Below, in pieces: positions 33,612 to 51,195 of a DNA stretch of 64,000 nt. The translations under genes were made by a program, and so were the position numbers. The notes under the pieces were generated by a model, which did not search any database, was not told the DNA's origin, and saw nothing but the letters and a program-made list of their open reading frames with translations. Source of the DNA: Tropicimonas sediminicola (GTDB lineage Bacteria; Pseudomonadota; Alphaproteobacteria; Rhodobacterales; Rhodobacteraceae); assembly GCF_900188335.1 (NCBI RefSeq), contig NZ_FZOY01000002.1:682001-746000 (forward strand), read 5' to 3'. Within the stretch, counting starts at the first letter, position 1. The number at the start of each line of letters is the position of its first letter.

Positions 33612-33630
33612 GCAACCGGGCGTTCCGTGG
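33612..33630 (+). repeat. Left attachment site (attL), 19-bp direct repeat
   Basis: GCAACCGGGCGTTCCGTGG, repeated exactly at 51177-51195. Flanking bases differ at both ends of the match. It lies 193 bp before the integrase start, the usual arrangement for tyrosine-integrase elements. Confidence 0.85.
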
Positions 33631-33823
33631 CGGGCACCGGCAAGGCCCCGGATTACCAGCAGAAACCCCAATCATTATCAGGCCACTATGCGGAATTCTC
33701 CGTCGCAGGATGCCCCCAGACGTTTCGTGCCGCTTCACCAAATATCACACACCGGAAGTGACGGATCAGTGACTGCTCTGGTGCTGAGCGACCGGATCGA
33801 CTATATGGGAGGGGTGCCGGGCG

Positions 33824-35206
33824 GTGTTGGAAGCACCGACCCGGCCACACGACCGACACCGCTTAAGGAAGCCTGCCATACCTACCGACACATACGATCT
33901 GACCACCGCCATTGCCACCCTCGCCGACGAGGCGGCCCAGCGCGGCACCGACCCCCGCGCCATCACCAAGGCGCTGATGCAAGTCGCCCTCGAAACCGGC
34001 ATCCGCCGGGAGTTGCGCAGCACCGTGCAGCTTGCGCTGGAACAGGCGAGTGGCGACGCACCCAAGGAACTGACCGATCTGGCCTGTCGTCGGCTGAAGC
34101 CGGGCAACCGTCTCAGCGACCCGCAGTTCGCGGGCCTGATGCTCGTCGCATCCACGAGGGGGAAGCGGTGGGTCCTCCGGTCTCAGGCCGGGGGCAAGCA
34201 GCGCCAGAAGACCGTCGGCCACTATCCGGCCCTGACACTCGCCGAGGCGCGCGAGAAATGGGTGACCATCAAGTCCGAAGGGTGGAACACAGCTCCGGCA
34301 GACAAGCGCTCCGAGACCACGCTGGAGGCGCTGGTGGACCACTACGTTGACCACCTGAAGGCGAAGGGCAACCGCTCATGGCAGCGGACGCTGAAGGTCT
34401 TGCAGAAGCACCTGCTGGACAAGCACGCCGCCATGCCCCTCGCCGACGTGACCGCTGAGGTTCTGGAAGGCTGCTACGAACACCTGATCGACACCCAGCC
34501 CGGCACCGCCCACAACATCCGCGCCCCTCTTAGCGCCATGATGAACTGGGCCGAGGCCCAGAAGCGGCTTCCCGTGGGAATGACCGCGCCCAAGCTGAAG
34601 GACACGCGCCGCGCCAAGGTGAAGGAATACCATCCGGGCACCAGCGAGTTGCGCACCATGCTGCAGGGTCTCGACACCCTGAAGCCCGAATACGCCGACA
34701 TTCTGCGCCTCCAGGCGCTGACCGGCTGCCGCATCAGCGAGGTATGCGGGGCCGACTGGTCCGAAATATCCCTCGACGAGAGGCGGTGGACCATCCCGGG
34801 TGAGCGGATGAAGAACAAGGAACAGCACATCGTCATGCTGTCCGATCAGGCCATCGCCCTGCTGGAACGCCAGCCGACCCGAACCGGCACGGTGTTCGGC
34901 AAGACCGCACCGACCCGCGAACATGTGTCGAAGCTGTGGGCCACGCGCCGCGACGAACTGGGCCTGCCGAAGGCGTTCACCAGCCACACGCTGCGCAAGG
35001 CGTTGGGATCGTGGCTCGCCGAGAGCGGCGAAGGTCTCGACATGCGTGACCGGATGCTGGCGCACAGCCGGGGCGGCGTGGACAAGCACTACAACCTCGC
35101 CCTGTTGAACCAGCCCGCCGCCAAGTGCTGGCAGAAGTGGGCCGACCGGCTCGACGCCATCGAGACCGGCGGCAGCGTCGTCCTGATCGACGAGGTCCGA
35201 GCATGA
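33824..35206 (+). CDS. int: Tyrosine recombinase / integrase
   Basis: A 460-residue site-specific recombinase. Residues 165-250 form a SAM-like core-binding domain and 270-430 the catalytic domain. The active site is complete: Arg303 (TGCRISEVCG), Lys330 (ERMKNK), His388 and Arg391 (HTLRKALG), His414 (LAHSRGG) and Tyr423 (KHYN). Start GTG 33824 follows GGGAGGGG. It would join the element's att site with the chromosomal 19-bp core upstream of thrS. The long N-terminus before residue 160 probably binds arm sites. It overlaps the next gene by 4 bp. Confidence 0.93.
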   Translation: MLEAPTRPHDRHRLRKPAIPTDTYDLTTAIATLADEAAQRGTDPRAITKALMQVALETGIRRELRSTVQLALEQASGDAPKELTDLACRRLKPGNRLSDPQFAGLMLVASTRGKRWVLRSQAGGKQRQKTVGHYPALTLAEAREKWVTIKSEGWNTAPADKRSETTLEALVDHYVDHLKAKGNRSWQRTLKVLQKHLLDKHAAMPLADVTAEVLEGCYEHLIDTQPGTAHNIRAPLSAMMNWAEAQKRLPVGMTAPKLKDTRRAKVKEYHPGTSELRTMLQGLDTLKPEYADILRLQALTGCRISEVCGADWSEISLDERRWTIPGERMKNKEQHIVMLSDQAIALLERQPTRTGTVFGKTAPTREHVSKLWATRRDELGLPKAFTSHTLRKALGSWLAESGEGLDMRDRMLAHSRGGVDKHYNLALLNQPAAKCWQKWADRLDAIETGGSVVLIDEVRA

Positions 35207-35460
35207 GCCTCCCCGACTACAAGACCGAACACTGGACGATGTGGTTCATGACCGGATGCCACATCGACGGCCTCGTGCCGCCGAACGTAGTGGCCGTGCC
35301 AACCGTCTACCTCGACGTGCGATCCAAGTTCCGAGCCTCCGAACGCACCCTTGCATGTATCACAGCCCAGCGCCTGAAGCTGGACCCGATCTTCACGGAG
35401 GCCCTGATCCGCGTGCTGAAGGGGGCCGCCGATGGCCTGCTTTCGGAGGCCCGGGCATGA
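35203..35460 (+). CDS. Small hypothetical element protein
   Basis: 85 residues, starting MSLPDYKTEHWTMWFMTGC, not recognised. It is coupled by ATGA overlaps to the integrase before it and the HTH gene after it, so it is a genuine member of the integrase transcript. No motif is seen. Confidence 0.65.
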   Translation: MSLPDYKTEHWTMWFMTGCHIDGLVPPNVVAVPTVYLDVRSKFRASERTLACITAQRLKLDPIFTEALIRVLKGAADGLLSEARA

Positions 35461-36011
35461 CCGGGCCGAAAGACCCCACCCTCGCCAACTGCTGGGCATC
35501 CACCCCGGGTAGGAGCGCCGAGGAACTGCGGCAGGCGTTCGCGGCCCACAAGCTGGCGCGGGACCTGCAGTCTTCGCTTGATGCGAGGTCCGTCGAGCCT
35601 CGGATAGAGCTGACGCCCATCGGCCATGACGAGGACGGCAACCCCATCCTCTCCGAAGCCGACTGGTTGACGATGGCCGAGGGGGAGATCGAGGCCTGGG
35701 AACCCGCGCCGGACTGGCTGGTGCAGCAGCTTGGTATGCCGATCCCGGTGGACTATGTGCGTCCGGCCATCCGGGGGCTTGCCGCCACCGCCAAGCGTGC
35801 CGCCGAGGATGGCCGACCGCTGACCGGCACCAACGCCCAGCGCCAGCAGACTGCCAAAGACGGGGCCGCCGCAATCCGCGCCGCCGCCATCGAGGAACAG
35901 TACGTGGGGATGCAGAAGTCGCAGTGGAAGGCGGAACTGGCGACCCGGTTCGGCGTCAGCACCAAGACGGTCCACCGCGCCCTCGACGGAATGAAGCCGC
36001 CGACCGGGTAG
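35457..36011 (+). CDS. Hypothetical element protein with C-terminal helix-turn-helix
   Basis: 184 residues. The N-terminal part is acidic and unrecognised (HDEDGNPILSEADWLTMAEG). The last 30 residues (WKAELATRFGVSTKTVHRALDG) look like a helix-turn-helix. It starts in an ATGA overlap with the preceding small gene. Two large palindromes follow its stop, so it is one candidate for the protein that binds them. Confidence 0.65.
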   Translation: MTGPKDPTLANCWASTPGRSAEELRQAFAAHKLARDLQSSLDARSVEPRIELTPIGHDEDGNPILSEADWLTMAEGEIEAWEPAPDWLVQQLGMPIPVDYVRPAIRGLAATAKRAAEDGRPLTGTNAQRQQTAKDGAAAIRAAAIEEQYVGMQKSQWKAELATRFGVSTKTVHRALDGMKPPTG

Positions 36012-36033
36012 CCCGGAAGCACCTGAAAAAACA

Positions 36034-36087
36034 GGACACACATGTGTGTCCACACTTTCTGGAAGGGACACACATGTGTGTCCCTTC
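36034..36087. promoter_or_regulatory. Paired large palindromes (candidate operators)
   Basis: Two copies of the perfect palindrome GGACACACATGTGTGTCC, at 36034-36051 and 36066-36083. The second is embedded in a 26-bp perfect palindrome (36062-36087). The centres are 32 bp apart, three helical turns. They lie 73 bp before the excisionase-type gene and 23 bp after the preceding stop. Confidence 0.7.
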
Positions 36088-36159
36088 TTTGCTGTTGGGC
36101 GCTGGGAGGTCGTGTGCATTGAAAGGGGTCGTCCCGAAACATCCTATGGAGATGACACC

Positions 36160-36393
36160 ATGCCCAAACCTCCCGATCACAGCGTTCCGCCCCGGAGCGA
36201 AACCTCCGATTTGACCATCAAGGAAGTCTGCAGCGAACTGCGGGTCGCCCCGGCGACCGTCTACCGGATGCTGAAATCCGGTGAACTGGCAGGCTACAAG
36301 TTCGGCGAGAACAACTGGTCCACCCGCATCACCCGCCAGAGCGTTGACGCGCTGAAGCGGCGCCAGCCCTTCGAACCGAAGGGGGCCGCGTGA
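36160..36393 (+). CDS. Excisionase/AlpA-like helix-turn-helix protein
   Basis: 77 residues. LTIKEVCSELRVAPATVYRMLKSGELAGYKFGENNWSTRITRQSVDALKRRQPF is a clear MerR-type winged HTH of the excisionase family. ATG 36160 follows TATGGAG; the longer frame would run back through the palindromes and is rejected. In such elements this protein directs excision or activates replication genes. Its stop overlaps the next micro-ORF start (TGATG). Confidence 0.82.
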   Translation: MPKPPDHSVPPRSETSDLTIKEVCSELRVAPATVYRMLKSGELAGYKFGENNWSTRITRQSVDALKRRQPFEPKGAA

Positions 36394-36452
36394 TGGACCT
36401 GATCATGCTCTCCAGATCCAGGCTCCAACTGGAACTGGAGGCCGACCGATGA
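36393..36452 (+). CDS. 19-codon micro-ORF linking two element genes
   Basis: ATG 36393 overlaps the preceding stop by one base (TGATG). The frame encodes MDLIMLSRSRLQLELEADR and ends in a TGA that overlaps the next ATG (ATGA). The chain of two overlaps fits a translational-coupling peptide that passes ribosomes to the next gene. No function of the peptide itself can be claimed. Confidence 0.4.
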   Translation: MDLIMLSRSRLQLELEADR

Positions 36453-36751
36453 TCGTCGATGGAAACTACCGAGCCCGGCGCCTCGATGACTTTCAGTTTG
36501 TGGTCGAGCGGCGGAAGGGCCGACAGCCCGGGAACAAGCGGTTTGGGGGGGCTTGGCGGGTCCTCGGGTATGTAACGACGCCCGAAGGCGTGATGCGGCT
36601 CACATCCACCAAAACTAGGGTCTGCGACGTGACCGGGAGACAGTGGCATCCGGCTCCGGCCCCTAGCAAAGCGCTTCTGGATTGGCTGCTCCAGGAGATG
36701 GCGGCCTCCACCGCCAGGCGGAAGGTGCACCGGGAGAACGGCGATGACTGA
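36449..36751 (+). CDS. Small hypothetical element protein
   Basis: 100 residues, beginning MIVDGNYRARRLDDFQFVVE, unrecognised. It is coupled to the micro-ORF by ATGA and overlaps the replication gene start by 8 bp, so it is probably part of the replication operon. Confidence 0.65.
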   Translation: MIVDGNYRARRLDDFQFVVERRKGRQPGNKRFGGAWRVLGYVTTPEGVMRLTSTKTRVCDVTGRQWHPAPAPSKALLDWLLQEMAASTARRKVHRENGDD

Positions 36752-38753
36752 CAACCACTGGGGCCTGTTCGCCATCGTCTCGAACGACAAGCCCAACGGC
36801 AAGCCGGACAAGATACCGATGGACCTGACGACAGGGAAATCTCCGGTCGCCGCGAAGTCGGCCTTCACCTACTCCCTTGAAGAAGCCAAGGCGAAGCTGA
36901 ACGGCGGCTCCACGATGCTGGGCTACCTGCCTGCACCTGACAGCACCTATGTTGGGGCCGACTTGGACAAGTGCCTCGAAAACGACGGGGCCACTTTCAA
37001 GGATTGGGCCGACGACCTGCTGGGCGACTACGATGGGCCGGATGCGGTCACCCCGTCCGGACAGGGGGTGCGGATCATGATGCCCCGCGCGCCTGGCGAC
37101 GAGGACCGGGGCAGCGCCAAGGAAAGAAACGACGTGGGGTTCTTTGCAACGGAGGCCCGTGCATTCACGGTGCCGCTGGAACTGGCGGACAAGCTGGACG
37201 AGTTGGTGCGCGACGATGGTCTGGTGGATCGCATTGTCGCCCGCCGGGACGCCGCCGATGACGAGGCGCGCCCGGGTCTCTACACGGCGGAGCAGAAGGT
37301 CGCCCACAACGGCGAATTCGACCGCAAGTGGAAGGATCACTGGTTGAACCACCTTTCACCAGAGGACCAGCAAGCCGCTGTGACAGAAATGCTGAAAGCC
37401 TTGCCGAAGGAGTTCTGCGAAGAGTACTCCCAGTGGCTGGAAATATCGATGGCCCTGCACCATTTGAGCGTTCTCGTCATCTGGGATGCGGAGACCATTT
37501 GGGACCAGTGGAGCGAGAGCGGCGCAGTGTATCGCGCTGGCTTCTTCAGGATCAGGACGGGCGACGCCAACTACAACCCGGCCCAAAACCGCTACTTTTG
37601 GGGGCGACTGCAGCCCAACAAGGGCGTCACGATCTTCACGCTGCTGCACCATGCCAGGGAACACGGGTTCGACATAGAGCCGTGGCGGCAGAAGGCCGAG
37701 GTGAGGCGCCGCGAACGACTAGCGGAAGATCTGGGCGAGTTGCTGACGAAGACCCGCAAGAAGCAGGAGAGCGGGAAGCCCGAAGGACGCATCATCAGCG
37801 GCCCCGACTTCCTCAATTACGACCCGGGTGCATTGCGGTGGGTGGTAGATGAGTGCATCCCGCCCGGCCTGACGGCGTTGGCAGGCCAGATGAAGGTAGG
37901 CAAGTCGTTTCTGCTGATCCAGCTTGCGGAGGCGATAACGACCGGCAGGGATTTCCTGGATATGCCGACGCAGCGAGGTCGGGTGCTGTATTATGCCGTC
38001 GAGGATGGGGTGAACCGCCTGCGTAGGCGCGTGAAGCAAATGGGCGTCCGGTTCGACCCTGATCGGCTGTCACTGGTGTTCCAAGGATCACCGACCCCCA
38101 CGGACCTGGCGAAGGATATCGCAAGGGACATTGAGGCGGTGGGCGGTGACGTCGCGTTGGTGATAATCGACACCTTCAAGCTGGCGTCCGGCACGCGAGA
38201 GGACAGCCGCAAGAACGCCTACGAGCAGGACGTGGAAATGCTGGCGGTGTTCAAGATGCTGGCCGACATGTCCGGTGTCGCCATCCTCGCCACCTTCCAC
38301 GAGCGAAAGCCGCCACCCGGACGACAGAGACAGACAGGGGATCACTTCGATGCCATTTCCGGGTCGGCGGGCATCCTCGCCACAGCTGACGGTTTCCTGC
38401 GGCTTATCCGAGAGCGTGAGACGACGCTGGGGAGGCTTTACATAGGAGGCCGAGACGTGCGCGAGGACCGCACTATCAACCTCGATCACAGCCGTGAAGA
38501 CGAGGGCCGCTGGTCGCCGCTGTCCGGGGCAATGAACAGGTCTCTCGACATGCTGACGAGGATGAAGGCAGGGGCGCGGAAGGACATTCTGGAAACGATT
38601 ATGTTGAAGGGTCCGATGACCCGGGACGAGCTGCGAGGGACGCTGCCGAACCACACCTCGGAGAACATCCAGCGGTCTCTGCACAGGCTCTTGGAGGGGG
38701 GTGTGATTGTCGAGGACGAAGACGGAAACCTGCACCTGGCGATGGGGGAATGA
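36744..38753 (+). CDS. Replication protein: PrimPol-like, PriCT-2 and RepA-type helicase domains
   Basis: A 669-residue fusion. Residues 1-150 resemble the bifunctional primase/polymerase fold, with the acidic pair in GADLDKC (Asp73, Asp75) and SGQGVR at 105-110, where related enzymes usually have His in place of Arg110. Residues 225-310 resemble PriCT-2 (WLEISMALHHL, WDQWSESGAVYR). Residues 365-560 are a RecA/RepA-like ATPase with Walker A GQMKVGKS (380-387) and Walker B ALVIIDTF (470-477). The last 80 residues look like a winged helix. It would prime and unwind element DNA. Iteron-like repeats start 8 bp after its stop. Confidence 0.82.
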   Translation: MTDNHWGLFAIVSNDKPNGKPDKIPMDLTTGKSPVAAKSAFTYSLEEAKAKLNGGSTMLGYLPAPDSTYVGADLDKCLENDGATFKDWADDLLGDYDGPDAVTPSGQGVRIMMPRAPGDEDRGSAKERNDVGFFATEARAFTVPLELADKLDELVRDDGLVDRIVARRDAADDEARPGLYTAEQKVAHNGEFDRKWKDHWLNHLSPEDQQAAVTEMLKALPKEFCEEYSQWLEISMALHHLSVLVIWDAETIWDQWSESGAVYRAGFFRIRTGDANYNPAQNRYFWGRLQPNKGVTIFTLLHHAREHGFDIEPWRQKAEVRRRERLAEDLGELLTKTRKKQESGKPEGRIISGPDFLNYDPGALRWVVDECIPPGLTALAGQMKVGKSFLLIQLAEAITTGRDFLDMPTQRGRVLYYAVEDGVNRLRRRVKQMGVRFDPDRLSLVFQGSPTPTDLAKDIARDIEAVGGDVALVIIDTFKLASGTREDSRKNAYEQDVEMLAVFKMLADMSGVAILATFHERKPPPGRQRQTGDHFDAISGSAGILATADGFLRLIRERETTLGRLYIGGRDVREDRTINLDHSREDEGRWSPLSGAMNRSLDMLTRMKAGARKDILETIMLKGPMTRDELRGTLPNHTSENIQRSLHRLLEGGVIVEDEDGNLHLAMGE

Positions 38754-39446: not shown

Positions 39447-40697
39447 TCAGAAAGCAGCCCTCAGCCTCAGCCCGAACATGGCAACCGTATCTTTTGTGGG
39501 GCTCAGCGCCGGGTTTTTGATCACCTGAATGCTCGGGGTCAGCTCAATGCCTTCGGTCAATTGCCATTGCTGGAATACCTCAAGGCTATATTGATCGTCC
39601 AGCTTGGACCCGAAGGTGTCTTCATTTGGTCGGGACCAGTTCAGCCCCGCACCAAGCATGTTCTGGCTCGGGTTGGTCGTGTAGCCGAAACCGGCACTCA
39701 GAGCGGTTTCATAGAGGCTGCCGCCATCCTTGGCCCAACCACCGCGTATAAACGGAAACCACGTGTTGTCGATCGCTTTGGAGTAAGAAAATGCAGCCCC
39801 GTACCCGCTGGGGGTTCCTGCCGCCGTGCGTTCATCAATTTGCCATAGGGTCACGTGGGCATTATCGAAGAAAAGGGCATCGGGCCCAGAGGTCCACCCG
39901 AACTCCAGCGTTTTGAAGGTCTCGAAGTCGTTGAAGAAGGTGTCAAACCCGGCAAGCGGATCGGTCGGGTCTCCGTTGGCGTCGACGATGCTGGCCGCGA
40001 CATAGTAGTTTTCGCTCAAGAAACCGCCGGCCATCACCCCCAGAGATCCGTCAGGCAACCCGCCGATGGTGCCCGATCCGGTCTGGAAAGCGAGGTTCGA
40101 GAAACCGGACCACGGGCTGGCAAGGGCATAGACATCGGTGTAATCCGTCACGTCCAGCCACCCGGCATAAACGGTGCCGCGGCCTTCAGCAAAATCCTGT
40201 TGCCAGTAGAAATGCGTCATCCGCGTGCCCTGGTCGCTGAAGACGGAACTGATCGCCCCAGCATAGCCAAGCTCGCTGCCAAAGTCAGTCGGTGCCACGT
40301 CTGTAAAGGCATGACGGTGCTCAAGTTTGAAGACGAGCTTGCCCGAATTGGCCTGCCCCCGGTTCAACAATTCCCAAGTACCAAAGAAGCGAAGCGCACC
40401 GCTGGCTGTGTTGTCTTCTCCAAGGCTTGAGGACGCCTTGTAGCCCAGAACGTTGTAGTCGATCCCAAAGTCTAACCCTGTGCGCTCCTTTACGCCTGCT
40501 TTCCACTCCGACCAGGATTGCTGCTTGTTGATACCAAGCAGGTCGTCAGAATCCTCCGCGTCGGATGCCAGGACATTTGGCGTTGAGTCGGGGCCGGCGA
40601 GGTTGCTGGCGCTTTGGGCAAAAGTTGCCATCGGCGCTGCGGCGAACAATCCGGAAAGTGTCGGCGCGAGGATGTAGGACTTGAGGGTGGGTTTCAC
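39447..40697 (-). CDS. OprB-family carbohydrate-selective porin
   Basis: A 416-residue outer-membrane protein. The signal peptide ends in PMATFA-QS. A beta-barrel pattern with alternating hydrophobic and aromatic residues ends in the C-terminal Phe of AMFGLRLRAAF. Stretches such as LGYKASSSLGEDNTASGALRFFGTWELL, KLVFKLEHRHAFTD and TRMTHFYWQQDFAEGRGTVYAGWLDVTDY match OprB porins. The start appears to be GTG 40697 after AGGGAAC. It is co-directional with the AraC regulator gene, 164 bp downstream of it. The solute is not known. Confidence 0.85.
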   Translation of the reverse strand: MKPTLKSYILAPTLSGLFAAAPMATFAQSASNLAGPDSTPNVLASDAEDSDDLLGINKQQSWSEWKAGVKERTGLDFGIDYNVLGYKASSSLGEDNTASGALRFFGTWELLNRGQANSGKLVFKLEHRHAFTDVAPTDFGSELGYAGAISSVFSDQGTRMTHFYWQQDFAEGRGTVYAGWLDVTDYTDVYALASPWSGFSNLAFQTGSGTIGGLPDGSLGVMAGGFLSENYYVAASIVDANGDPTDPLAGFDTFFNDFETFKTLEFGWTSGPDALFFDNAHVTLWQIDERTAAGTPSGYGAAFSYSKAIDNTWFPFIRGGWAKDGGSLYETALSAGFGYTTNPSQNMLGAGLNWSRPNEDTFGSKLDDQYSLEVFQQWQLTEGIELTPSIQVIKNPALSPTKDTVAMFGLRLRAAF

Positions 40698-40861: not shown

Positions 40862-41917
40862 CTACCGCTTTCCGGTTGGAACGCGCCGCAGCCGCTGACG
40901 ATAAGCGCGCGGCGTTTCGCCCGTGTTGGACTTGAAGAACCTCGAGAAGTTGGCGGCAGCGGAAAAACCCAACTGGGCCGCGATGTCCGCGATCGGCGTG
41001 TCAGTCGTTTCCAGCGCGTCACAAGCCAGCGCAAGGCGCGCGCGACGGAGTTCGCTCGCGAGGCTCGTGCCAAGGACAGACAACCCGGCTTCCAGTTCTG
41101 CCGGAGCCAGGCCGATCGCCTCGGCCACGGCCTGCTGCAGGTTGTCTTCGTGGCGATTGAGGATCTCCGGCGCTACGGCGGCGATGGCGCGGGTCAGCGA
41201 CGGGCGCTCCAGTAAAGCCTCGGTTGCAGGGGTGCGGGCAAGACGGTTGACAGCACGGGACCGCAGCAGCTTTGACGGAAAGCGGATCACCTGCACTGGA
41301 GACCCGGTTTCCCGAATGTCGAGGCCTCTGTAACCCGGCGGCAATGCGAGTGCAGAAGGTGTTTCGAGCACCACGTCGCCGGTTGCCCGAGTGTCGTCGA
41401 GCAGATCGAGAATCCGGAGAAATGTTGCAAATGTGAATCCGATGTTCTGAAGCGGCACTTGGCGCGGACGAAACGTGCGTTCTACACAGTAGGAGGATTG
41501 CACGGGGCCGATTTCCAGACGGTGCCGCGCCGATGCGGTGAATTTCACTGTGGAAAGCACGAGGCCTGTCAGGATTTGGCCAAGAGTTTCGCCACCCTTG
41601 AGCGCGTCCTGCGTGATAGGCCATGCCTCCAGGTCGAGGTGTTCCCCGACGTGCACGCCGAGCCACGGGTCGCCGATGGCCCGGGCAAGGGACTCGACGA
41701 GCCCATAGATCACCTCGGCCTGCACGAGCCGCGAAGGATCTTTCGCGGCTTCCAGCGTAAGCCCGTGAGCCTCCATCAGTTGGTCCACGTCATAGGACCG
41801 CGCCTTCAGATAGCCAAGCAAAGGGGAAATCGTGTTCAGTTGCACCAAGGCGCTCGCCCGGGCTACGGGGCTTCCCGGGAGGAAATCGGCATCAGGTAAC
41901 TTCATGCTTCCCATCAT
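40862..41917 (-). CDS. AraC family regulator with Arabinose-bd-type N-terminus (OruR/ArgR-like)
   Basis: A 351-residue regulator. The N-terminal ~200 residues (INTISPLLGYLKARSYDVDQ-like QLNTISPLLGYLKARSYDVD; WLGVHVGEHLDLEAW) match the ligand domain found in OruR-type AraC proteins. The C-terminal ~100 residues carry two HTH units (LASELRRARLALACDALETT; IADIAAQLGFSAAANFSRFFKSNTGETPRAYRQ). It is divergent from the amidohydrolase-ABC operon and upstream of the porin, so it probably controls one or both. Met codons at 41914 and 41905 are alternative starts. Confidence 0.88.
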   Translation of the reverse strand: MMGSMKLPDADFLPGSPVARASALVQLNTISPLLGYLKARSYDVDQLMEAHGLTLEAAKDPSRLVQAEVIYGLVESLARAIGDPWLGVHVGEHLDLEAWPITQDALKGGETLGQILTGLVLSTVKFTASARHRLEIGPVQSSYCVERTFRPRQVPLQNIGFTFATFLRILDLLDDTRATGDVVLETPSALALPPGYRGLDIRETGSPVQVIRFPSKLLRSRAVNRLARTPATEALLERPSLTRAIAAVAPEILNRHEDNLQQAVAEAIGLAPAELEAGLSVLGTSLASELRRARLALACDALETTDTPIADIAAQLGFSAAANFSRFFKSNTGETPRAYRQRLRRVPTGKR

Positions 41918-41990: not shown

Positions 41991-42139
41991 TGCCGCCTCA
42001 GGTTGCTAGTCTGCGCCGACTGCTGAGGCATCGCCCGAAAGATTCGGTTCGCGCGAACGGCGAATTACAAGCGCTCATGTTGGAGCGGTGAACGGCCCGC
42101 GCAAGGCGTATGTGGCCACTGCAAACGGGAGAAAACGGT

Positions 42140-43516
42140 TTGAAAAACTTGATGAAAATAGCTGTGCTGTCTGTCCTGGCGGCAGGCCCGGTGTGCGCAC
42201 AAGATGCGCTGCCGCAGGTATTGTTTACGAATGTGCAGGTGTTTGACGGTGTGAACGAGGCCCTCATCGAAAACGCTTCGGTTCTGGTCGAGGGCAACAA
42301 GATCAAAACCGTGTCGACCGACGCCGTCGACGCCCCGGATGCGACAGTGATCGACGGTGGCGGGCGGACGATGACGCCGGGATTCGTCGAGACCCATGCC
42401 CACTTCATGCTCATGGGGCCATCGGTGCCGGCCATGGAAGCCAGTAAGACCTGGGAGGATTTCGGCATCCACGCCACCAAGATGGCCGAGATGTACTTGA
42501 TGCAGGGCTTCACCACCGTACGCGACGCGGGCGGAGCTAACGGTGGTATTCGTAGGGCAATCGATAGCGGGTTGATCGTCGGTCCGCGCCACTATCCTTC
42601 CGGTGCGTTTATCGGCACGAGAGGGGGGCACGCCGATTTCGCCAACTTCACTGCACTGCCTGATGCAGAGACAAACGTATCTCGATTGAACATCTCGCAA
42701 CAGGCCAACGGCCCTGACGACGTGCTGAAATTCGCGCGCAACAACTTCCGCATGGGTGCCACTCAGATTAAATTCATGCAATCGGGTGGCATCGTTTCGG
42801 TATTCGATCCGTTCCAATTGCTTGCCGGATCAAAAGAGGAACTTGAGGCGGCGGTTCAGGTCGCCAACGAGTACGGCAGTTACGTCATGGTACATGCCTA
42901 TCGAAAAGAAGCCGCGATGGCCGCACTGAATGCTGGCGTTAAGTCCATCGAACATAATTTGGGGTTCGACAAGGAAGTCGCAGATTTGATGATAGAGAAA
43001 GGCGCCTACACCACTACCAACCTGACCAGCTTCGATCCGTCGATACTGGAGATTCCGCCAGTGCGCGACGTGCCATCAAGCCTGGCCAAAGCGACAGCGG
43101 CAAAGGAGATGTTTGCGAACTACATTTCGAACATGAAGCAATATCCTGTTAAGCGTGGCTTCAATACGGATTGTATTGACACGGTTGAAGCCTGCAACAT
43201 CCAGATTGCCTACGAGAAGCATTTGCACGAGAAATATTTCAGCGCCTTCGATGGACTGGTGGCGATGACATCGGTGGGTGGAGAAATTGTCGCCCTGTCT
43301 GGCGATTTCATGAACCCATATCCGGAAGGCAAGCTCGGCGTCATCGAAGAAGGCGCTTACGCTGATCTGTTGCTCCTCGACGGGAATCCGCTCGAAGCCT
43401 TCTCTGTCGTCGGCGCGTCAGACAAGTGGCTCGACGCAGAGCCGCGCCCTGAAAGCCCCGAAACGATCCGCATCATCATGAAGGACGGCGTGATCTACAA
43501 GAACACGCTTCAGTGA
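42140..43516 (+). CDS. Secreted metal-dependent amidohydrolase (prolidase/imidazolonepropionase-like)
   Basis: About 458 residues from TTG 42140, which follows GGGAG with good spacing; ATG 42152 is an alternative. A signal peptide (MKIAVLSVLAAGPVCA-QD) places it in the periplasm. The metal site shows VETHAHF (HxH), Lys in TQIKFMQSGG, His in YVMVHAYRK, His in KSIEHNLG and Asp in GFNTDCID. The C-terminal KLGVIEEGAYADLLLLDGNPLE is the usual beta-sandwich return. Relatives cleave X-Pro dipeptides or other amides. The substrate here is unknown. It is 57 bp before the ABC genes, with a hairpin between. Confidence 0.85.
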   Translation: MKNLMKIAVLSVLAAGPVCAQDALPQVLFTNVQVFDGVNEALIENASVLVEGNKIKTVSTDAVDAPDATVIDGGGRTMTPGFVETHAHFMLMGPSVPAMEASKTWEDFGIHATKMAEMYLMQGFTTVRDAGGANGGIRRAIDSGLIVGPRHYPSGAFIGTRGGHADFANFTALPDAETNVSRLNISQQANGPDDVLKFARNNFRMGATQIKFMQSGGIVSVFDPFQLLAGSKEELEAAVQVANEYGSYVMVHAYRKEAAMAALNAGVKSIEHNLGFDKEVADLMIEKGAYTTTNLTSFDPSILEIPPVRDVPSSLAKATAAKEMFANYISNMKQYPVKRGFNTDCIDTVEACNIQIAYEKHLHEKYFSAFDGLVAMTSVGGEIVALSGDFMNPYPEGKLGVIEEGAYADLLLLDGNPLEAFSVVGASDKWLDAEPRPESPETIRIIMKDGVIYKNTLQ

Positions 43517-43573: not shown

Positions 43574-44260
43574 TTGCACCCATTGCGGATTGATCGGCTT
43601 GTCCACCGGTGGCCGCGCGCGGAGCGTTGCACGCTGGAGATTGGCGCGCTGTCTCTGGCGTCCGGCGAGAGCCTGTTCCTGTATGGACCGAGCGGGTGCG
43701 GAAAATCGACCTTGCTGTCCGCGATCGCGGGAGTGGTCGATGTGCCGAAGGGGGTCATCCGCGTCGCGGAACAGGATCTTGGCGCCCTGCGCGGTGGTGC
43801 GCGGGACCGGTTCCGGGTGGATCACATCGGCATTATCTTTCAGGTGTTCAATCTCGTTCCGTGGCAGAGTGCGCTCGAGAACGTCCTTCTGCCCTGCACA
43901 TTCTCGCAGCGTCGCCGCGTGCGTGCGGGCGACAATCCCGCGGGAACGGCCCGCCGACTGCTTGACGAATTGGGTCTGTCCGATCCGGCGCTGGCGTCGA
44001 AGCCGGCCAACGAGCTCAGTGTCGGGCAACAGCAGCGGGTCGCCGCCGCGCGGGCTCTGATCGGCAAGCCGGACCTGATCCTGGCGGACGAGCCGACCTC
44101 GGCGCTCGATGAGGCGGCCAAGGCGGCCTTCGTCGACCTGCTGGCGCGGGAATGCGCCGAAGCGGGCGCCGCGCTTCTCTTTGTCAGTCACGACCGCAGC
44201 CTGGAGCGTCATTTCGACCGCAGTGTGGACTTCCTCGAACTGAACCGGAGCGCCGCCTGA
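43574..44260 (+). CDS. ABC transporter ATP-binding protein (Zrg-like system)
   Basis: A 228-residue ATPase starting at TTG 43574 behind GGGAG. Walker A is GPSGCGKST, the Q-loop is FQVFNLVPW and Walker B is LILADEPTSALD. The signature reads LSVGQQQRVAAA, with Val in place of the usual first Gly. The switch is LFVSHDRSL. It belongs to the LolD/MacB branch that powers FtsX-fold permeases. The stop overlaps the permease ATG by one base. Confidence 0.88.
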   Translation: MHPLRIDRLVHRWPRAERCTLEIGALSLASGESLFLYGPSGCGKSTLLSAIAGVVDVPKGVIRVAEQDLGALRGGARDRFRVDHIGIIFQVFNLVPWQSALENVLLPCTFSQRRRVRAGDNPAGTARRLLDELGLSDPALASKPANELSVGQQQRVAAARALIGKPDLILADEPTSALDEAAKAAFVDLLARECAEAGAALLFVSHDRSLERHFDRSVDFLELNRSAA

Positions 44261-45591
44261 TGCTTGGGTTCAGCCTGCGCAGCCTGTGGAACCGCCGGTT
44301 CGTCGCCGGCCTGACCGTGCTGGCCATCAGCCTCAGCGTCGCGCTGATCCTCGGTGTCGAGCGGATTCGGGGGGGCGCGCGCGACAGCTTCGCCAACTCC
44401 GCCTCGGGGATCGACCTGGTCGTGGCGCCGCGCGGCAATTCCGTCCAGATCCTGATGGCCACGGTGTTTGGCGTCGGCGGTACCGGGACCGGCATGACCT
44501 GGGAGAGCTTCAAGTGGCTGGAGGATCGGCCCGAAGTCGCCTGGGCGGTCCCGATCCAGATGGGCGACAATCATCGCGGCTATCCGGTGATCGGGACGGA
44601 TGCGTCGTATTTCGAGCATTTCCGGCACTCCGGCGGCCAACCGCTCTCTCTGGCGGCTGGCACGTTCTACACCGGCGATGGGGCAGACGCCGCCGTGATC
44701 GGGGCCGAAGTCGCGGCGCGGTTCGGCTATGCGCCCGGTGCGGTGATCGTCAACGCCCATGGCTCAGGAGAGGTCTCGTTCGACCTCCACGACGACGCGC
44801 CGTTCACCATTTCGGGCGTGCTCGCGCCGACCGGTACCGCCGTCGACCGGATGGTCTTCGTCACGCTCGAGGGCTTTGACACCCTGCATGCGCAGGAAGA
44901 CGCGCCGCTGGCCGCCCCCCTCGACCCGGCCGCCATGCCCGCCGACGGTCATGGTGAGGATGACGCACACGACGACCATGACGACCACGAAGATCATGGC
45001 GACCATGAAGGCACGGAGGTCGGACACGGACACGAACCGGACCGGATCAATGCCGTCTATATTGGGCTGATCGATCGGACCAGTGTCCTCGGTCTGCAGC
45101 GGGCCGTCAACCAACGCCCCTCTGACGCGTTGAGCGCCGTCCTCCCGGCGGTCGCGCTCGCCGAGCTCTGGGGGATCACCGGGACGGCTGAACGCGCGAT
45201 GCGACTGATGGCTTGGGCCGTGGCTTTGGCAGGAATGATCGGCATGGTGGTCATGCTCTCTGCGACCCTCGAGACCCGCCGCCGCGAATTTGCGATCCTG
45301 CGGTCTGTTGGGGCCACACCCACGCGTATCTTCACGTTGATCGTCACGGAAGCAGCCGTCCTCACCGCGGCGGGGCTGATCCTTGGCCTTGCTCTGCTCA
45401 CGGTGGCCACGTTCGTGACCGACCCGATCCTGTCCGCCCGCTTCGGTCTGCGATTGGGATGGAATGTCTTCGGGGCGCGCGAACTGACCACCCATTTCGT
45501 CATCTTCTGCGCCGGGCTGCTCGCCTCGCTTGTCCCGGCAGTCCGGGTCTATCGCATGACGCTGGCCGACGGGCTGTCGGTTCGGCTATGA
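44260..45591 (+). CDS. FtsX-fold ABC permease with His/Asp-rich loop
   Basis: A 443-residue membrane protein with one N-terminal and three C-terminal hydrophobic helices around a large periplasmic domain, the MacB/FtsX plan. Residues about 228-260 form a striking His/Asp/Glu-rich loop (HGEDDAHDDHDDHEDHGDHE), a likely binding site for zinc or another transition metal. ATPase, permease and DUF3299 protein together resemble the zinc-related Zrg genes of Vibrio. Whether it imports metal, exports it or delivers it to envelope proteins cannot be read from sequence. Confidence 0.85.
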   Translation: MLGFSLRSLWNRRFVAGLTVLAISLSVALILGVERIRGGARDSFANSASGIDLVVAPRGNSVQILMATVFGVGGTGTGMTWESFKWLEDRPEVAWAVPIQMGDNHRGYPVIGTDASYFEHFRHSGGQPLSLAAGTFYTGDGADAAVIGAEVAARFGYAPGAVIVNAHGSGEVSFDLHDDAPFTISGVLAPTGTAVDRMVFVTLEGFDTLHAQEDAPLAAPLDPAAMPADGHGEDDAHDDHDDHEDHGDHEGTEVGHGHEPDRINAVYIGLIDRTSVLGLQRAVNQRPSDALSAVLPAVALAELWGITGTAERAMRLMAWAVALAGMIGMVVMLSATLETRRREFAILRSVGATPTRIFTLIVTEAAVLTAAGLILGLALLTVATFVTDPILSARFGLRLGWNVFGARELTTHFVIFCAGLLASLVPAVRVYRMTLADGLSVRL

Positions 45592-45611
45592 CAAACCAAG
45601 GGGAAGTCTCC

Positions 45612-46268
45612 ATGCCCATGTTTGCTCGTCTCGTCTTGATGCTCTCGCTTGCCGTTCCTCCGGGGCTGGCGCAGGCGGCAGACCCTCAGGAGATCTCCTG
45701 GGAGACGCTCGCGCCTCCGGCCGCCGTGATCGAGAACCCGTTCGAGACCATCACCTACCACCAGATGGACACCCTCCGCCAGATCCTGCGGTTCGAGACA
45801 GGAGCCGAGCAAAGCGATGACGCAGAGGCGCGCGCCAAGGCGCAAGCGTTACGCGAACAACTGTCCAAGGACGGCCTCGATGTCGACGGATTGTTCGCTG
45901 CGCGTGTGGCGATCATGGAGAAACGTGAAGCGGCAGCCTCAGCGGTGAACGAGGACATCGTCGGCACGAGTGTCCGCCTACCGGGATATATGCTGCCCTT
46001 GAAATTCAAGGATCGAAAGGCGGTTGAGTTCCTTCTCGTGCCCACCGTCGGCGCCTGCATCCACACCCCACCACCGCCCGCCAACCAGATCGTCCATGTC
46101 GTGTATCCCGAGGGCATCGAGGTGGACGTACTTTTCAGGCCCGTCTGGATCACCGGGACCATGGTCGCCCAGAGTTCGGTTCAGGACGTCGGGTACGTCG
46201 ATGGACGGGCCCCGGTCTCCGTGAGCTATTCGATGCAGCCGGTGCTGGTCGAGAAATATGGCGGGTGA
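45612..46268 (+). CDS. DUF3299 exported protein
   Basis: 218 residues from ATG 45612, preceded by AAGGGGAAG and giving a clean signal peptide (MPMFARLVLMLSLAVPPGLAQA). An ATGA-coupled ATG at 45588 would add eight residues. The C-terminal half has the DUF3299 hallmark VGACIHTPPPPANQIVHV, with Cys and His that could bind metal. DUF3299 proteins go with Zrg-type ABC transporters. It is the last gene of the cargo operon. Confidence 0.82.
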   Translation: MPMFARLVLMLSLAVPPGLAQAADPQEISWETLAPPAAVIENPFETITYHQMDTLRQILRFETGAEQSDDAEARAKAQALREQLSKDGLDVDGLFAARVAIMEKREAAASAVNEDIVGTSVRLPGYMLPLKFKDRKAVEFLLVPTVGACIHTPPPPANQIVHVVYPEGIEVDVLFRPVWITGTMVAQSSVQDVGYVDGRAPVSVSYSMQPVLVEKYGG

Positions 46269-47458: not shown

Positions 47459-47468
47459 CGGCACGCAG

Positions 47469-47486
47469 GAGGGTCAATCGACCCTC
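47469..47486 (+). terminator. Hairpin after the DUF5681 gene
   Basis: A 7-bp stem (GAGGGTC with GACCCTC) around AATC, with no clear T run. Confidence 0.4.
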
Positions 47487-48152
47487 TCACTGCAATCCGT
47501 TCGCTGTCTGCCCGCCCAAAGAGCGGATTGTGACGCGATATCTACCGATCAGCCCCCCTTACCACGCCAGCGTGCGGGAAGACGCCGTAATCCGCCCAAA
47601 TGTGGCCCCACCGCTTTGAGGGCAGGTCGGCCCTTTTGGGGCCAACAACGATCAGACCCCGGCCAAGCAATGCTGAGCAGAGCTGCCGGGCTGCTCGCGA
47701 CGAGATGAATGCGGACGTTGTAGTGCCCCAGCTGATTACTCCGGCTTCAGCAACCGACCGGTATCGACGCGACGCAAGCAGATCAACTGAGCCATCTGTG
47801 AGCCGACTTCAAGTTTGGAATAAGGTCAGCTTGGAAGCAGGACGGGCGAAGCATGCGTGTAAGCAGCGACAGCTTCCTGCGCAAAGCTGCCGGTCACGGC
47901 GCATCAGCGCTTCGCTAGTGCAGCTTCTTCAATTGAACCGGGAGCCGCCATACGCGTCCAGAGCAGCATAGGGGCGGGAAGACGACCTTCGCGGCAGCCG
48001 CGAAAGCCGGACTTGGTTTTAATGAAAGCGAACAACCGCCGCTCCGACGTGCGCAGGTTCTCACTTCTATCAAAGGTCTATCGGCGCGCCTGCGTAGACG
48101 ATGTGTTACGCAGGGTTATCGTACGGGGAAGGTGGGCTGGGTGTCAGACGAA
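47487..48152. other. Gene-poor stretch
   Basis: No supported gene in either direction; several short open frames lack motifs and ribosome-binding sites. It may be remnant phage or transposon DNA. Confidence 0.4.
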
Positions 48153-50138
48153 TTAGGTGGCGGTTGTTGAGGGTGCCAAGGTCCAGCCAAGGTCGATTTC
48201 CGTTTCGCACGTTGGTTCGGCGAAGAGACCTCTCAATCTCGCTTTCTCAAGCCTGTCGTCGACCAATCGATCAATTCCCTTTATCAACCCACGCAGTTGA
48301 GCCTTTCGCGGCATGATCGGCTCATCATCCATCTTGACAGAAAGCCTATTTGCAACGCTTTGCCACCAGGGGCCTTCGGTCAAAATCAACTCTGGCACTT
48401 GATCATATCGGTCTTCGAAACAACCCGCAAGCGCGCGCTCATATTCCCTGTCCAACGACAACCATGCATTCACGAAATCATCCTCTTCAATGGTTTGAAG
48501 AATTGGCTCTCGGAGAAACCTCTGAGTACCCTTACCATTGACAATTTTAAGCTCACCGAGAAACTCGAAGTAATCTGACTTCAAAGCCTCGATTAAGTGC
48601 TTAGCCACTGATTGTGCCTTCCATTGGGAGTACCAATCATGTGCAGCTTGCTGCAGATGAGAAAGCACTTCCATAAAATCCTCTTTCTCGCGGCGAATAT
48701 AGCCGAGTCCTTCATAGCCTGAGTCAAAACTCCAACGTGTTGCACCAAAGCTGTCGAGATCAAGCGAGGGGATTACAATCTCATCAATATAGCGCTTGAA
48801 CCTCTGAACCCAGCCGCTCTCGACGTCCTCGATCAACCCTTCGTCAAGTAGCATCAATACGACGCCAACAACGTGCATCACAACAAGAGGATTCTCATAA
48901 CGGCCCTCTTCAATTCCGTTGCGAATATCGGCAATGTCGGCATCAAACTCTGTCACCGAACCGTCTGAAAAATCCCAGCTCGAAATATGCCAGAGCCGTT
49001 TCCAAGAAGGCCAGCTATCCGGGCCGTTGACTTCTGGGGCGCCAGCCAGTTCAGCGTTGAACCGCTTCGCATCGACGACTCCGCTATTGAGGATGTCAAC
49101 CCATTGACGAAGTGTGATTGCCGTCCGGATGCCATGGATGAGGTTGTATTTCAGAATTACTTTCCGAGTGGGAGTGTCAGGATCGTCTTTATTCATCTTG
49201 AAGGCATAGAATGTTCGTCGTTCAGGGTCGTCGCGCCCGATTTCCGGCACTAGATCTGAAGGGGTCAGAGGATTTTCTGGGCCGCCAAGGTTCAGTCTGA
49301 ATTCTATGAAGAAAATGAAAGCCTGAGTGATGAGGCTATCTATCAGCTCACTATTTTCCCGAAATCTCCGATCTGTAGCTTCAAGCATGCCTGCCAGGAA
49401 CCACAAGAACTGTCGGATAGCACGGAGATTATTGAATCCAGAGAGACGATAGAGTTCTTCAATCCTATCGCTTCTAGAAGCGATTAATGTTCTTGCAACG
49501 CCCTCCGATATCTCCGCAATGAACGCATCGACCGCAGCCTTGGGGTCAGGTGGAATCTCGAAAGTTTGGCCGATAACCTTCTCCCGAAACTCTCCAAACT
49601 TTTCGTCGTTAATCCGTTGTGTGTTTGCCACTAGAATGATACGACAGTTGCCATGCTCGATGTAGCGGTTAAGGACGCCGAGTAGTTCAGATTGATTAAA
49701 GCCGCACCGTTCGAGGTCGTCAATTATAACCAAAGCCTCATTGATTGCATCAGACGCTTTGGTCACTTGCTTCAAAGTGCTTTCAACGGCTTGTCCGATG
49801 TCTGCCGATCCTGAAAACACACCTCCAGAGCCAACCGAGATAGCACCAGAGAAAAGGGAGGAGGCGAAGCCAAGCCCTTGATGCATAATCTTGATGGCTT
49901 TGGACGATGCGGCATAAAACAGCTGCCTTTCAAAATCTTGCAAGTTGCTGATGCCGAACAACGATAGATATATGGTCTTTCGCATTGTAAAGTCATCTTC
50001 ACTCACGAGGCTTTGAATAAAGTGCGTCTTGCCGCAACCCCATCGACCTTCAATCATTACCGCGAACTTTGGATTGTCAGGAGAATTGACCCAACGCAAT
50101 AGGAATTGTCGAATTTGATTTCGGGCCGCGTCGTGCAT
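48153..50138 (-). CDS. KAP family P-loop NTPase (candidate defence protein)
   Basis: About 661 residues from ATG 50138; the open frame reaches 50237 but the upstream part is not KAP-like. Walker A is EGRWGCGKT (30-38) and Walker B LVIIDDLERCG (136-146), with DDLER typical of KAP NTPases. Between them a Gly/Ser-rich hydrophobic stretch (88-112) stands where other KAP proteins carry membrane helices. The C-terminal 400 residues are unrecognised. KAP NTPases occur in anti-phage and plasmid-exclusion systems. The gene is clearly richer in A/T than its surroundings and lies next to attR, both signs of recent acquisition. Confidence 0.82.
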   Translation of the reverse strand: MHDAARNQIRQFLLRWVNSPDNPKFAVMIEGRWGCGKTHFIQSLVSEDDFTMRKTIYLSLFGISNLQDFERQLFYAASSKAIKIMHQGLGFASSLFSGAISVGSGGVFSGSADIGQAVESTLKQVTKASDAINEALVIIDDLERCGFNQSELLGVLNRYIEHGNCRIILVANTQRINDEKFGEFREKVIGQTFEIPPDPKAAVDAFIAEISEGVARTLIASRSDRIEELYRLSGFNNLRAIRQFLWFLAGMLEATDRRFRENSELIDSLITQAFIFFIEFRLNLGGPENPLTPSDLVPEIGRDDPERRTFYAFKMNKDDPDTPTRKVILKYNLIHGIRTAITLRQWVDILNSGVVDAKRFNAELAGAPEVNGPDSWPSWKRLWHISSWDFSDGSVTEFDADIADIRNGIEEGRYENPLVVMHVVGVVLMLLDEGLIEDVESGWVQRFKRYIDEIVIPSLDLDSFGATRWSFDSGYEGLGYIRREKEDFMEVLSHLQQAAHDWYSQWKAQSVAKHLIEALKSDYFEFLGELKIVNGKGTQRFLREPILQTIEEDDFVNAWLSLDREYERALAGCFEDRYDQVPELILTEGPWWQSVANRLSVKMDDEPIMPRKAQLRGLIKGIDRLVDDRLEKARLRGLFAEPTCETEIDLGWTLAPSTTAT

Positions 50139-50284
50139 GAAAAAAAAATTTCCGCCTAGATGCTCTTCGTTGCGACCATAGTCGATAGGGCGGCATCGTC
50201 TATCTGATTTTCGGGAATGTCTGACCGCACCATACACGCGGGGTGGCCGCTTAGGGGCTCGGTGTGTGTTCGAAGTGGACTAAG

Positions 50285-51128
50285 GTTACCGCGTGATGGC
50301 TGCAAAATTTGCACACGTAGCGAAAGGCAGGTTCAACGGGAGAACTGCAGCATCCCAGAACACCGAAGAGTGGCCGCAACCGGCCGGTTGCGCGCCTTCG
50401 AGCGATCTGGCCGATGGCCCGTTTTGTCCCGCTGACTTGACGTTGATGTGAGCCACCGCGAACGTCCGGTCCGTTCCCGCTTCATCGATGGTCTGGTGAG
50501 CGCAACGTTCGATGTTTCGGCCGCAGCCAAGGTTCGGCAAGTCGGCAAAGTACCCGCCTAGGAGGTCTACTTGTCTTCGTCGCCGGTTCGGGCGGTACTG
50601 AAGCTGCAATTTCCTTCTGCCTAAGGACCAGAACCTTGGCTGCCTAGCGGCATCAGCACTGCGGTGTGTCGGCGCCCCCTTGGGGGACACAGGAGCGGTT
50701 GGTGGCCAGGAGTTGGCGCGACGGCACCCCTTACCAAGCCGTAACTCTGAAAGTCTCTGCAAACCGCTCTTTCCGGTCCTACGGCTGCCCGACAAGACGG
50801 AGGCAGAGACGCTGTTGGGTCGCTTGATCCGGAGGAAGGATGTTTGGCGTTCTGGGAGTGGGCGACGACTGAGTTCCGCTGCCACGCAACGGGCTAGGGC
50901 TTGCCGCGCCGTCGAAAAAAATCTCGAAAAAAACTTGAGGGGTCGGCTGTGTATGGCTCTGCCTCGTCCGCCGCCCCCGAGAGCCTCATGGGTAGGGGGT
51001 GGGGGGTGTTTCGCTTCCGGCGCGACCCGACTAGGCCAACCGCAGCCCAGCGCCGCGAGGTATCACTTGCATCCTCCGCCGTCTGGCGGCACAACCCAGT
51101 TCCGAAAATAAATCCACCCCGCTGAGCA
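50285..51128. other. Gene-poor right end of the element
   Basis: No convincing gene; a 199-codon minus-strand frame (50286-50885) has basic, low-complexity composition and no start context. A G-rich stretch near 50993-51009 (GGGTAGGGGGTGGGGGG) could form a quadruplex. Confidence 0.45.
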
Positions 51129-51149
51129 TTTCAGTGACGACCACTGAAA
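51129..51149. promoter_or_regulatory. Inverted repeat just inside attR
   Basis: Perfect 8-bp inverted repeat TTTCAGTG-ACGAC-CACTGAAA, 27 bp inside the right attachment site. It could be a recombinase or excisionase arm site, or an operator for a promoter reading into thrS. Confidence 0.45.
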
Positions 51150-51176
51150 GAATGAAATGTTTTCAATGGGGGCATC

Positions 51177-51195
51177 GCAACCGGGCGTTCCGTGG
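51177..51195 (+). repeat. Right attachment site (attR), 19-bp direct repeat
   Basis: GCAACCGGGCGTTCCGTGG, identical to 33612-33630. It ends 26 bp before the thrS ATG, leaving the thrS ribosome-binding site GAGGAG intact. Confidence 0.85.

What the first reader, a model, noticed from the sequence alone, without database searches (positions are those of the whole stretch)
33612..51195. 17.6-kb integrative element with a 19-bp core in the thrS leader
GCAACCGGGCGTTCCGTGG occurs exactly at both ends, one copy 193 bp before a complete tyrosine integrase and the other 26 bp before thrS. Integration into a synthetase leader rather than a tRNA gene is unusual, and the element combines a satellite-like replication module with metabolic and possible defence cargo.
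Basis: partly seen in the sequence, partly recalled or inferred. Interest (0 to 1): 0.85.

Follow-up and report, generated by a model that had tools for sequence, protein, structure and literature searches.

The report
Mobile element inside the thrS leader
A 17.6-kb mobile DNA element has inserted itself into the conserved control sequence just in front of an essential gene (thrS), parting the gene from its original promoter; a second bacterium appears to carry a related element at the same spot with a different (CRISPR-Cas9) cargo.

Summary
GCAACCGGGCGTTCCGTGG occurs exactly twice in the genome, at both ends of a 17.6-kb insert; joined flanks align through the junction to empty sites in the same genus. 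A tyrosine integrase, an excisionase-like gene and a primase-helicase lie at the left end.

New here. (1) The core is part of a family-conserved thrS 5' leader. Of 76 leaders, 74 have TTGAC upstream; the two without are this genome and an Aliiroseovarius MAG (G399), the only two of 394 genomes with this integrase type. G399 shows the same split, with Cas9-Cas1-Cas2 as cargo. Both right ends share repeats at the same distance from the core. (2) The leader has a conserved hairpin whose loop reads N-G-U, the threonine anticodon, in 42 of 42 aligned leaders: probably a ThrRS operator. (3) Integration leaves the thrS promoter in front of int and puts thrS behind element DNA. thrS is single-copy, yet only a weak replacement promoter was found. 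Known kind (dusA islands), new target.

The parts
33563..33591 (+). original thrS promoter left behind at the left end: TTGACT (33563-33568), N17, GATGCA (33586-33591); now points at int
   Evidence: same place and form as TTGACN-N17-CANANN, the consensus of 74 thrS leaders; scores 7.4 against a native median of 13.7 and minimum of 4.5; the plain consensus scan reports no promoter here
33612..33630 (+). attL core, 19 bp; imperfect dyad GCAAC-CGGGC-GTTCC at 33612-33626
   Evidence: in G399 the left copy is GCAAC-CGGGC-GTTGC, a perfect dyad
33755..33773 (+). arm-site-like direct repeats GAAGTGAC / TCAGTGAC, 11 bp apart
   Evidence: AGTGAC at 33757 and 33768; same motif and 11-bp spacing at the left end of the G399 element, 3 bp further from the core start
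33824..35206 (+). tyrosine integrase, open over its length (start codon uncertain)
   Evidence: Pfam Phage_integrase 6e-22, Arm-DNA-bind_3; PHROG 1 integrase 7e-51; 62-63% identical to the G399 integrase
35457..36011 (+). possible HTH regulator
   Evidence: PHROG 4583 transcriptional repressor, E 0.0016, weak; 41% over 51 residues with G399, E 1.4e-6
36034..36087 (.). two palindromes sharing GGACACACATGTGTGTCC, 32 bp apart, probable operator in front of the excisionase-like gene
   Evidence: none of 12 bp or more in L036 11600-12500 of the G399 element
36160..36393 (+). excisionase/AlpA-like HTH_17 protein (likely ATG start inside ORF 36046-36393)
   Evidence: TIGR01764 excise 1.1e-8, above cut-off; HTH_17 3.7e-10
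36744..38753 (+). primase-helicase (PriCT_2 + AAA_25), likely replication protein
39447..40697 (-). OprB-family porin (cargo)
   Evidence: PF04966 2.9e-13
40862..41917 (-). AraC-family regulator (cargo)
   Evidence: PF12833 4.8e-17
42110..43516 (+). amidohydrolase, nearest to a Xaa-Pro dipeptidase model but far below its cut-off (cargo)
43574..46268 (+). ABC ATPase, MacB/FtsX permease, DUF3299 protein (cargo)
48153..50237 (-). KAP-family NTPase, candidate anti-phage gene
   Evidence: PADLOC PDC-S49 8.9e-115; PF07693 2.4e-15
51067..51095 (+). weak candidate for a replacement thrS promoter: TTGCAT-N17-CACAAC
   Evidence: best hit in the last 300 bp, score 8.1, but reached by 48 of 200 shuffles; plain consensus scan finds none
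51129..51149 (.). palindrome TTTCAGTGACGACCACTGAAA, arm-site-like
   Evidence: CAGTG and CACTG at the same distance from the core in G399, where the palindrome is AAACAGTGATGAACACTGTTT
51177..51195 (+). attR core, 19 bp = start of the retained thrS leader
51184..51200 (+). thrS leader hairpin GGCGU-UCCGUGG-GCGCC; N-G-U triplet at 51191-51193
51222..53168 (+). thrS, threonyl-tRNA synthetase (host gene, only full copy)

Best explanation
It is a site-specific integrative element of about 17.56 kb. Its tyrosine integrase recombines an element core (attP) with a core in the 5' leader of thrS (attB). Shown: the two 19-bp cores, empty sites in relatives, the open integrase gene, a related integrase behind a thrS promoter and core in a second genome whose thrS is preceded by foreign DNA, and shared repeats at the ends of both. 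Inferred: strand exchange within GCAAC-CGGGC-GTTCC; the CAGTGAC repeats as integrase arm sites; the HTH_17 protein as directionality factor; excision to a circle that may replicate through its own primase-helicase. The target is probably chosen because the leader is nearly invariant in the family, perhaps as a ThrRS operator: a hairpin with a threonine-anticodon (N-G-U) loop, as E. coli ThrRS uses to repress its own mRNA. Insertion keeps that hairpin and the ribosome-binding site with thrS but leaves the thrS promoter 20-49 bp in front of attL, pointing at int. So (inferred) the host promoter reads into int while integrated, and the element's right end must supply thrS transcription; in the circle the same right end would lie in front of int.
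For: Exact cores, unique in genome. Empty site and collinear flanks in the same genus. Integrase, excisionase-like and primase-helicase genes. G399: integrase 62-63% identical, thrS promoter plus 13-bp core about 200-250 bp before its int (start codon uncertain), thrS preceded by unrelated DNA. 74 of 76 leaders have TTGAC upstream; the two exceptions are exactly these two genomes. Right-end repeats at equal distance. Leader hairpin: 99.5% of 205 cells paired, one pair with G-C, A-U and U-A, the same stem returned by RNAalifold on its own; loop triplet N-G-U in 42 of 42. thrS in one full copy.
Against: No replacement promoter stands out from shuffles (48 of 200 for the window, 67 of 200 for G399). 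Some 6-mer as frequent as CAGTGA and shared by all four ends arises in 35 of 1000 shuffle sets. attL and attR of G399 lie on different contigs, so that they bound one element is inferred; its own empty site was not found. Minimum-energy folds of three 51-nt leaders prefer another pairing, with ordinary z-scores. Covariation rests on two sequences, and a structure slid by 2 columns shows six both-sided changes, though only 56% of its cells pair. No excision, circle or ThrRS-binding data.
Confidence: 0.82

Rival explanations
1. An ordinary genomic island whose integrase merely happens to use a conserved DNA word; the leader hairpin plays no part in site choice and thrS expression is little affected.
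For: Integrases commonly pick conserved sites (recalled). The dyad GCAAC-CGGGC-GTTCC is offset from the RNA hairpin, and the core matches the three own tRNA-Thr genes found at 10 of 19 bases at best.
Against: Does not conflict with the data; but the promoter split follows directly from the position in both genomes.
Confidence: 0.45
2. The conserved leader is a structural or ribosome-binding element (for example Shine-Dalgarno sequestration) and the N-G-U loop is coincidence.
For: Folds of three 51-nt leaders pair the UUCCGU region with the Shine-Dalgarno region; many other leader positions are as invariant.
Against: Loop positions around G-U vary, the wobble position through all four letters, while G-U does not; the alifold consensus has the 5-bp stem of an anticodon arm.
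Confidence: 0.3
3. Composite: a short element (attL to about 38.8 kb) with later, unrelated insertions forming the cargo; not one mobile unit of 17.6 kb.
For: GC varies between 0.68 and 0.49 along the insert; of its proteins only int and the possible regulator match the assembled parts of the G399 element, which are incomplete.
Against: Both att ends are present and the right end has the same palindrome at the same distance as in G399; variable cargo is normal for such elements (recalled).
Confidence: 0.2
4. Chance repeat plus rearrangement, no integrative element.
For: G008 shows that other DNA can come between DUF1992 and thrS without a recognised integrase.
Against: Exact unique 19-bp repeat, adjacent integrase, empty sites, second case.
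Confidence: 0.02

Closest known systems
dusA-specific islands and IMEVchUSA3 (PMC4482086, PMC8409611; passages seen)
   Same: integrase inserts at the 5' side of a tRNA-related gene; 21-bp imperfect repeats at the ends; element supplies a new promoter (lacZ fusion for IMEVchUSA3); excised forms detected by PCR; mixed cargo.
   Different: There the insertion lies in the 5' coding part and the N-terminus is replaced; here it lies in the untranslated leader and the protein is untouched. Homology to the dusA integrases was not tested.
V. cholerae Aux3 T6SS island (PMC7721734; section 6 and passages seen)
   Same: integrase-bearing island between gcvT and thrS; attB a single copy in naive strains.
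   Different: Another class of bacteria, long att repeats, T6SS cargo; whether its att site overlaps the thrS operator is not stated in what I saw and was not tested.
E. coli thrS operator (PMC3858243, PMC6542539; passages seen)
   Same: region upstream of the thrS start codon with tRNA-like hairpins bound by ThrRS, which blocks the 30S subunit.
   Different: E. coli has hairpins H1 and H2 and a bipartite ribosome site; here one short hairpin, sequences not compared, no binding data.
ICEclc-type int control by an element-end promoter (recalled; PMC4063739 seen only in the listing)
   Same: a promoter at the other end lies in front of int only in the circle (recalled).
   Different: Not shown here; the candidate promoter is weak.

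Membership tests
Tyrosine-integrase integrative element (genomic island) | direct-repeat att cores at both ends with an integrase next to one | tested here: met
Tyrosine-integrase integrative element (genomic island) | empty site with one core in relatives | tested here: met
Tyrosine-integrase integrative element (genomic island) | excision/circular form | not testable with these tools
   no reads or bench work
ICE/IME | relaxase or mobilisation/conjugation genes | tested here: not met
   none recognised among the element's ORFs scanned; short ORFs were not all scanned
Phage satellite (PICI/P4-like) | integrase, AlpA-type regulator and primase-replication gene in order | tested here: met
   int, HTH_17/excise, PriCT_2-AAA_25
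Phage satellite (PICI/P4-like) | packaging or capsid-hijack genes, helper phage dependence | tested here: inconclusive
   no such family hit in the nine proteins scanned against PHROGs; helper dependence not testable
dusA-type 5'-end islands | integrase of the dusA-associated family | not tested
   no such sequence was compared
ThrRS autoregulatory operator | anticodon-arm-like hairpin (5-bp stem, 7-nt loop, N-G-U) upstream of the thrS ribosome site | tested here: met
   3 of 42 leaders have an 8-nt loop
ThrRS autoregulatory operator | binding by ThrRS and translational repression | not testable with these tools
   needs bench work

The most novel reading that the evidence does not exclude
A family of defence-carrying elements uses a ThrRS operator, that is a messenger-borne mimic of the tRNA-Thr anticodon arm, as its attachment site instead of a tRNA gene, and by landing there trades promoters with an essential gene: the host thrS promoter drives the integrase, and thrS comes to depend on the element's right end, with integrase arm sites a few dozen bases upstream, which ties loss or activity of the element to translation.
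Probability: 0.3. Interest if true: 0.75.

Novelty: new variant of a known kind. Interest (0 to 1): 0.58.

Why it matters
It gives a reason for a non-tRNA attachment site (an almost invariant regulatory leader), a natural promoter swap at an essential gene that can be measured directly, and a candidate ThrRS operator across a large alphaproteobacterial family. Rfam gave a single match in window 30000-54000, below its gathering score (E 0.84) and outside the leader; the paper listings showed no title on such a leader or element in these bacteria, but several of these listings were capped. The integrase, with an attB conserved across the family, might serve genome engineering in these bacteria.

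Tried and rejected
Third occupied site: G008 (same genus) has a divergent leader preceded by non-native DNA and DUF1992 18.3 kb away, but polyol/sugar genes fill the gap, no integrase was recognised among the ORFs looked at (150 aa or more in L142; 60 aa or more in L143), and no left core or promoter copy was found. Unexplained, not counted.

Origin of the core from tRNA-Thr: the three tRNA-Thr genes found match the 19-mer at 10 of 19 at best. They come from 28 of 42 tRNA places given to ARAGORN.

A short upstream hairpin CCCG-CAAC-CGGG: 90.9% of 164 cells paired, no both-sided change: not supported.

Replacement promoter: the consensus scan found none at either end, the native promoter at attL included; a matrix scan gave candidates no better than shuffles: unproven.

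Copies in viruses and plasmids: 99 stretches of viral contigs hold GCAACCGGGCGTTSC, none with thrS by tblastn; one of them, L181, also holds a distant integrase (29% identity), as does L260 (26%), not followed. One distant integrase fragment in viral contigs. No DNA match of the left end in plasmids, no integrase match in plasmids at 1e-40 or phages at 1e-30. First genome scan found none, the second only the G399 contig.

ilvE upstream of thrS elsewhere, to confirm the G399 empty site: no hit in 28 and in 130 loci, many only 383 bp long; G399's genus holds no other genome here. Unresolved.

Leader outside the family: model R1 hit 4 of 289 class genomes, all of the own family (own genome included), with strict filters.

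Full report
What was checked. The 19-mer lies at 33612-33630 and 51177-51195, both +, and nowhere else in the genome by exact search. Flanking letters differ on both sides, so the identity is exactly 19 bp. G399, of the same family in the tool's scheme, has a 74,892-base contig that by length and integrase position is NZ_JASBTN010000043.1, a MAG of Aliiroseovarius sp. BWSM_38; NCBI places that genus in Rhodobacterales, Paracoccaceae.

Empty site. With up to one mismatch the 19-mer occurs in 37 of 100 genomes (both numbers include the own genome), all in the own family, and in the 36 others as a single copy. In the 30 loci fetched there it stands in front of thrS (thrS by tblastn for L003-L030 and, for the last two genomes, in L039 and L040). 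In seven same-genus loci, DUF1992 lies 0.11, 0.61, 0.63 and 1.48 kb before the core in four and was not found in the stretch in three. The joined flanks of the window align through the junction: upstream of it 412 of 553 bases are identical in L040, 88 of 119 in L041, 50 of 63 in L042 and 13 of 14 in L039; without joining, alignment begins exactly at the junction in the two loci tested.

Anatomy. From the left: integrase with arm-binding and catalytic domains; a small possible repressor; two palindromes GGACACACATGTGTGTCC 32 bp apart; an excisionase-like HTH_17 protein; a PriCT_2/AAA_25 primase-helicase; cargo: OprB porin, AraC regulator, amidohydrolase, ABC ATPase with MacB/FtsX permease and DUF3299 protein; a small protein near DUF5681 but below its cut-off; a KAP NTPase that matches the defence candidate PDC-S49. 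No relaxase, conjugation or packaging gene was recognised in the proteins scanned.

Second element. Of 394 family genomes searched (own included), only the own genome and G399 hold an integrase at E <= 1e-60. In G399 the integrase ORF is preceded by CTTGACT...CACATACCC-GCAACCGGGCGTT-GCGAGAAC, that is a thrS promoter and 13 bp of the core, and its thrS leader is preceded by other DNA without TTGAC. The left core there is a perfect dyad GCAAC-CGGGC-GTTGC, which suggests where the integrase protomers sit (inference). Its cargo begins with Cas9, Cas1 and Cas2, followed by three 34-nt direct repeats 65-66 bp apart at the contig end. The two ends are on different contigs, so the rest of the element is not known.

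End repeats. CAGTGA occurs once or twice in each of the four 200-bp ends, 5 in all against a shuffle mean of 0.35 and maximum of 4; but some 6-mer as frequent and shared by all four ends arises in 35 of 1000 shuffle sets. Stronger is position: CAGTG and CACTG lie at the same two places in both right ends; the left repeats are 11 bp apart in both and differ by 3 bp in distance from the core start.

The target. 76 leaders were recognised with at most 7 substitutions among the loci fetched by then, after setting aside three duplicate loci and seven others (L001, L033, L034, L036-L038, L047); most had been fetched because they hold the core, so their variety is understated. 74 have TTGAC within 75 nt upstream; the two without are the window and G399. 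Seventeen bases after the TTGACN hexamer stands CANANN, with C in 62, A in 73 and A in 51 of 74. Transcription would start roughly ten bases before the core (inference from spacing). The leader from core to Shine-Dalgarno is nearly invariant. The 13-bp form of the core has a match in 291 of 394 family genomes, chance hits included. Of 38 family genomes given to a model of the leader (37 without an exact 13-mer; G008 was not in that search), 32 had a hit at E <= 1; by eye 28 of these stand before a thrS-like start, two (L140, L141) are chance and two (G108, G130) were not looked at.

The hairpin. Of 48 true leader loci among the 50 sources, 42 were aligned (A4), chosen for variety; six were left out. 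RNAalifold returns GGCGU-loop-GCGCC without being told. 99.5% of 205 cells pair; the outer pair is G-C in 39 and A-U or U-A in one each of 41 distinct rows; shuffles reach the covariation score in 0 of 500, but the structure slid by 2 columns has more both-sided changes (6 cells against 2) with 56% of cells paired. The loop triplet is CGU 34, GGU 3, UGU 3, AGU 2: G-U in 42 of 42, all four letters at the wobble place; the base before is a pyrimidine in 41 of 42 and the base after a purine in 40 of 42. The loop is 7 nt in 39 and 8 nt in 3. The own tRNA-Thr loops found read UU-NGU-AA. E. coli ThrRS binds tRNA-like hairpins upstream of its own start codon and blocks the 30S subunit (PMC3858243 and PMC6542539, passages). 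That this leader is such an operator is inference by layout. Against it, minimum-energy folds of three 51-nt leaders choose another pairing that involves the Shine-Dalgarno region, with ordinary z-scores; the 17-nt hairpin alone does fold.

How it works. Integrase recombines attP and attB. The thrS gene keeps core, hairpin and ribosome site; its promoter stays at attL, with int downstream in the same direction. thrS has one full copy, the other hit in the genome being a 29% match over 142 residues, so the element end or read-through must transcribe it. The best candidate, TTGCAT-N17-CACAAC at 51067-51095, scores 8.1, similar to the retained native promoter (7.4) but reached by 48 of 200 shuffles; in G399 the best is 9.0, reached by 67 of 200.

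Known or new. Integration at the 5' side of a gene with replacement of the promoter is known and measured for a dusA island (PMC8409611; PMC4482086; passages), and Aux3 of V. cholerae lies between gcvT and thrS (PMC7721734, section 6). No title on a thrS-leader element in this family or on a ThrRS operator in alphaproteobacteria showed in the listings (15 of 19 papers listed; 20 of 232; 15 of 49; 0; 0; 7 of 8; 7 of 7; 8 of 12); the library holds open-licence papers only. So: a new variant of a known kind, with a new candidate regulatory RNA as the target.

Noticed in passing
L036:13023-17893 (G399, Aliiroseovarius MAG): Type II CRISPR genes (Cas9, Cas1, Cas2) and three 34-nt repeats at the contig end, carried downstream of the integrase and regulator of the sister element.
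   Followed up: partly
G008:C29 (L142, L143, L126): Same-genus genome with DUF1992 and thrS 18.3 kb apart by polyol/sugar genes, no integrase recognised; the three bases before its leader core are ATC as at the window's right end. Possibly a relic or a rearrangement.
   Followed up: partly
36034-36087: Two palindromes sharing GGACACACATGTGTGTCC in front of the excisionase-like gene, probable operator; no palindrome of 12 bp or more in L036 11600-12500 of the G399 element.
   Followed up: partly
33824-33890: The integrase start is unclear: where the G399 relative seems to have ATG the window has ATA; upstream GTG and TTG are in frame.
   Followed up: no
24127-24219: ARAGORN tRNA-Leu call that the Rfam tRNA model does not list and that does not look like a tRNA; the tRNA-Leu at 60120-60206 is listed.
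   Followed up: yes
50240-51176: About 0.9 kb at the element's right end without a recognised gene, with a G-rich tract; it must hold the thrS promoter if the reading is right, unless thrS is read through from further in.
   Followed up: partly
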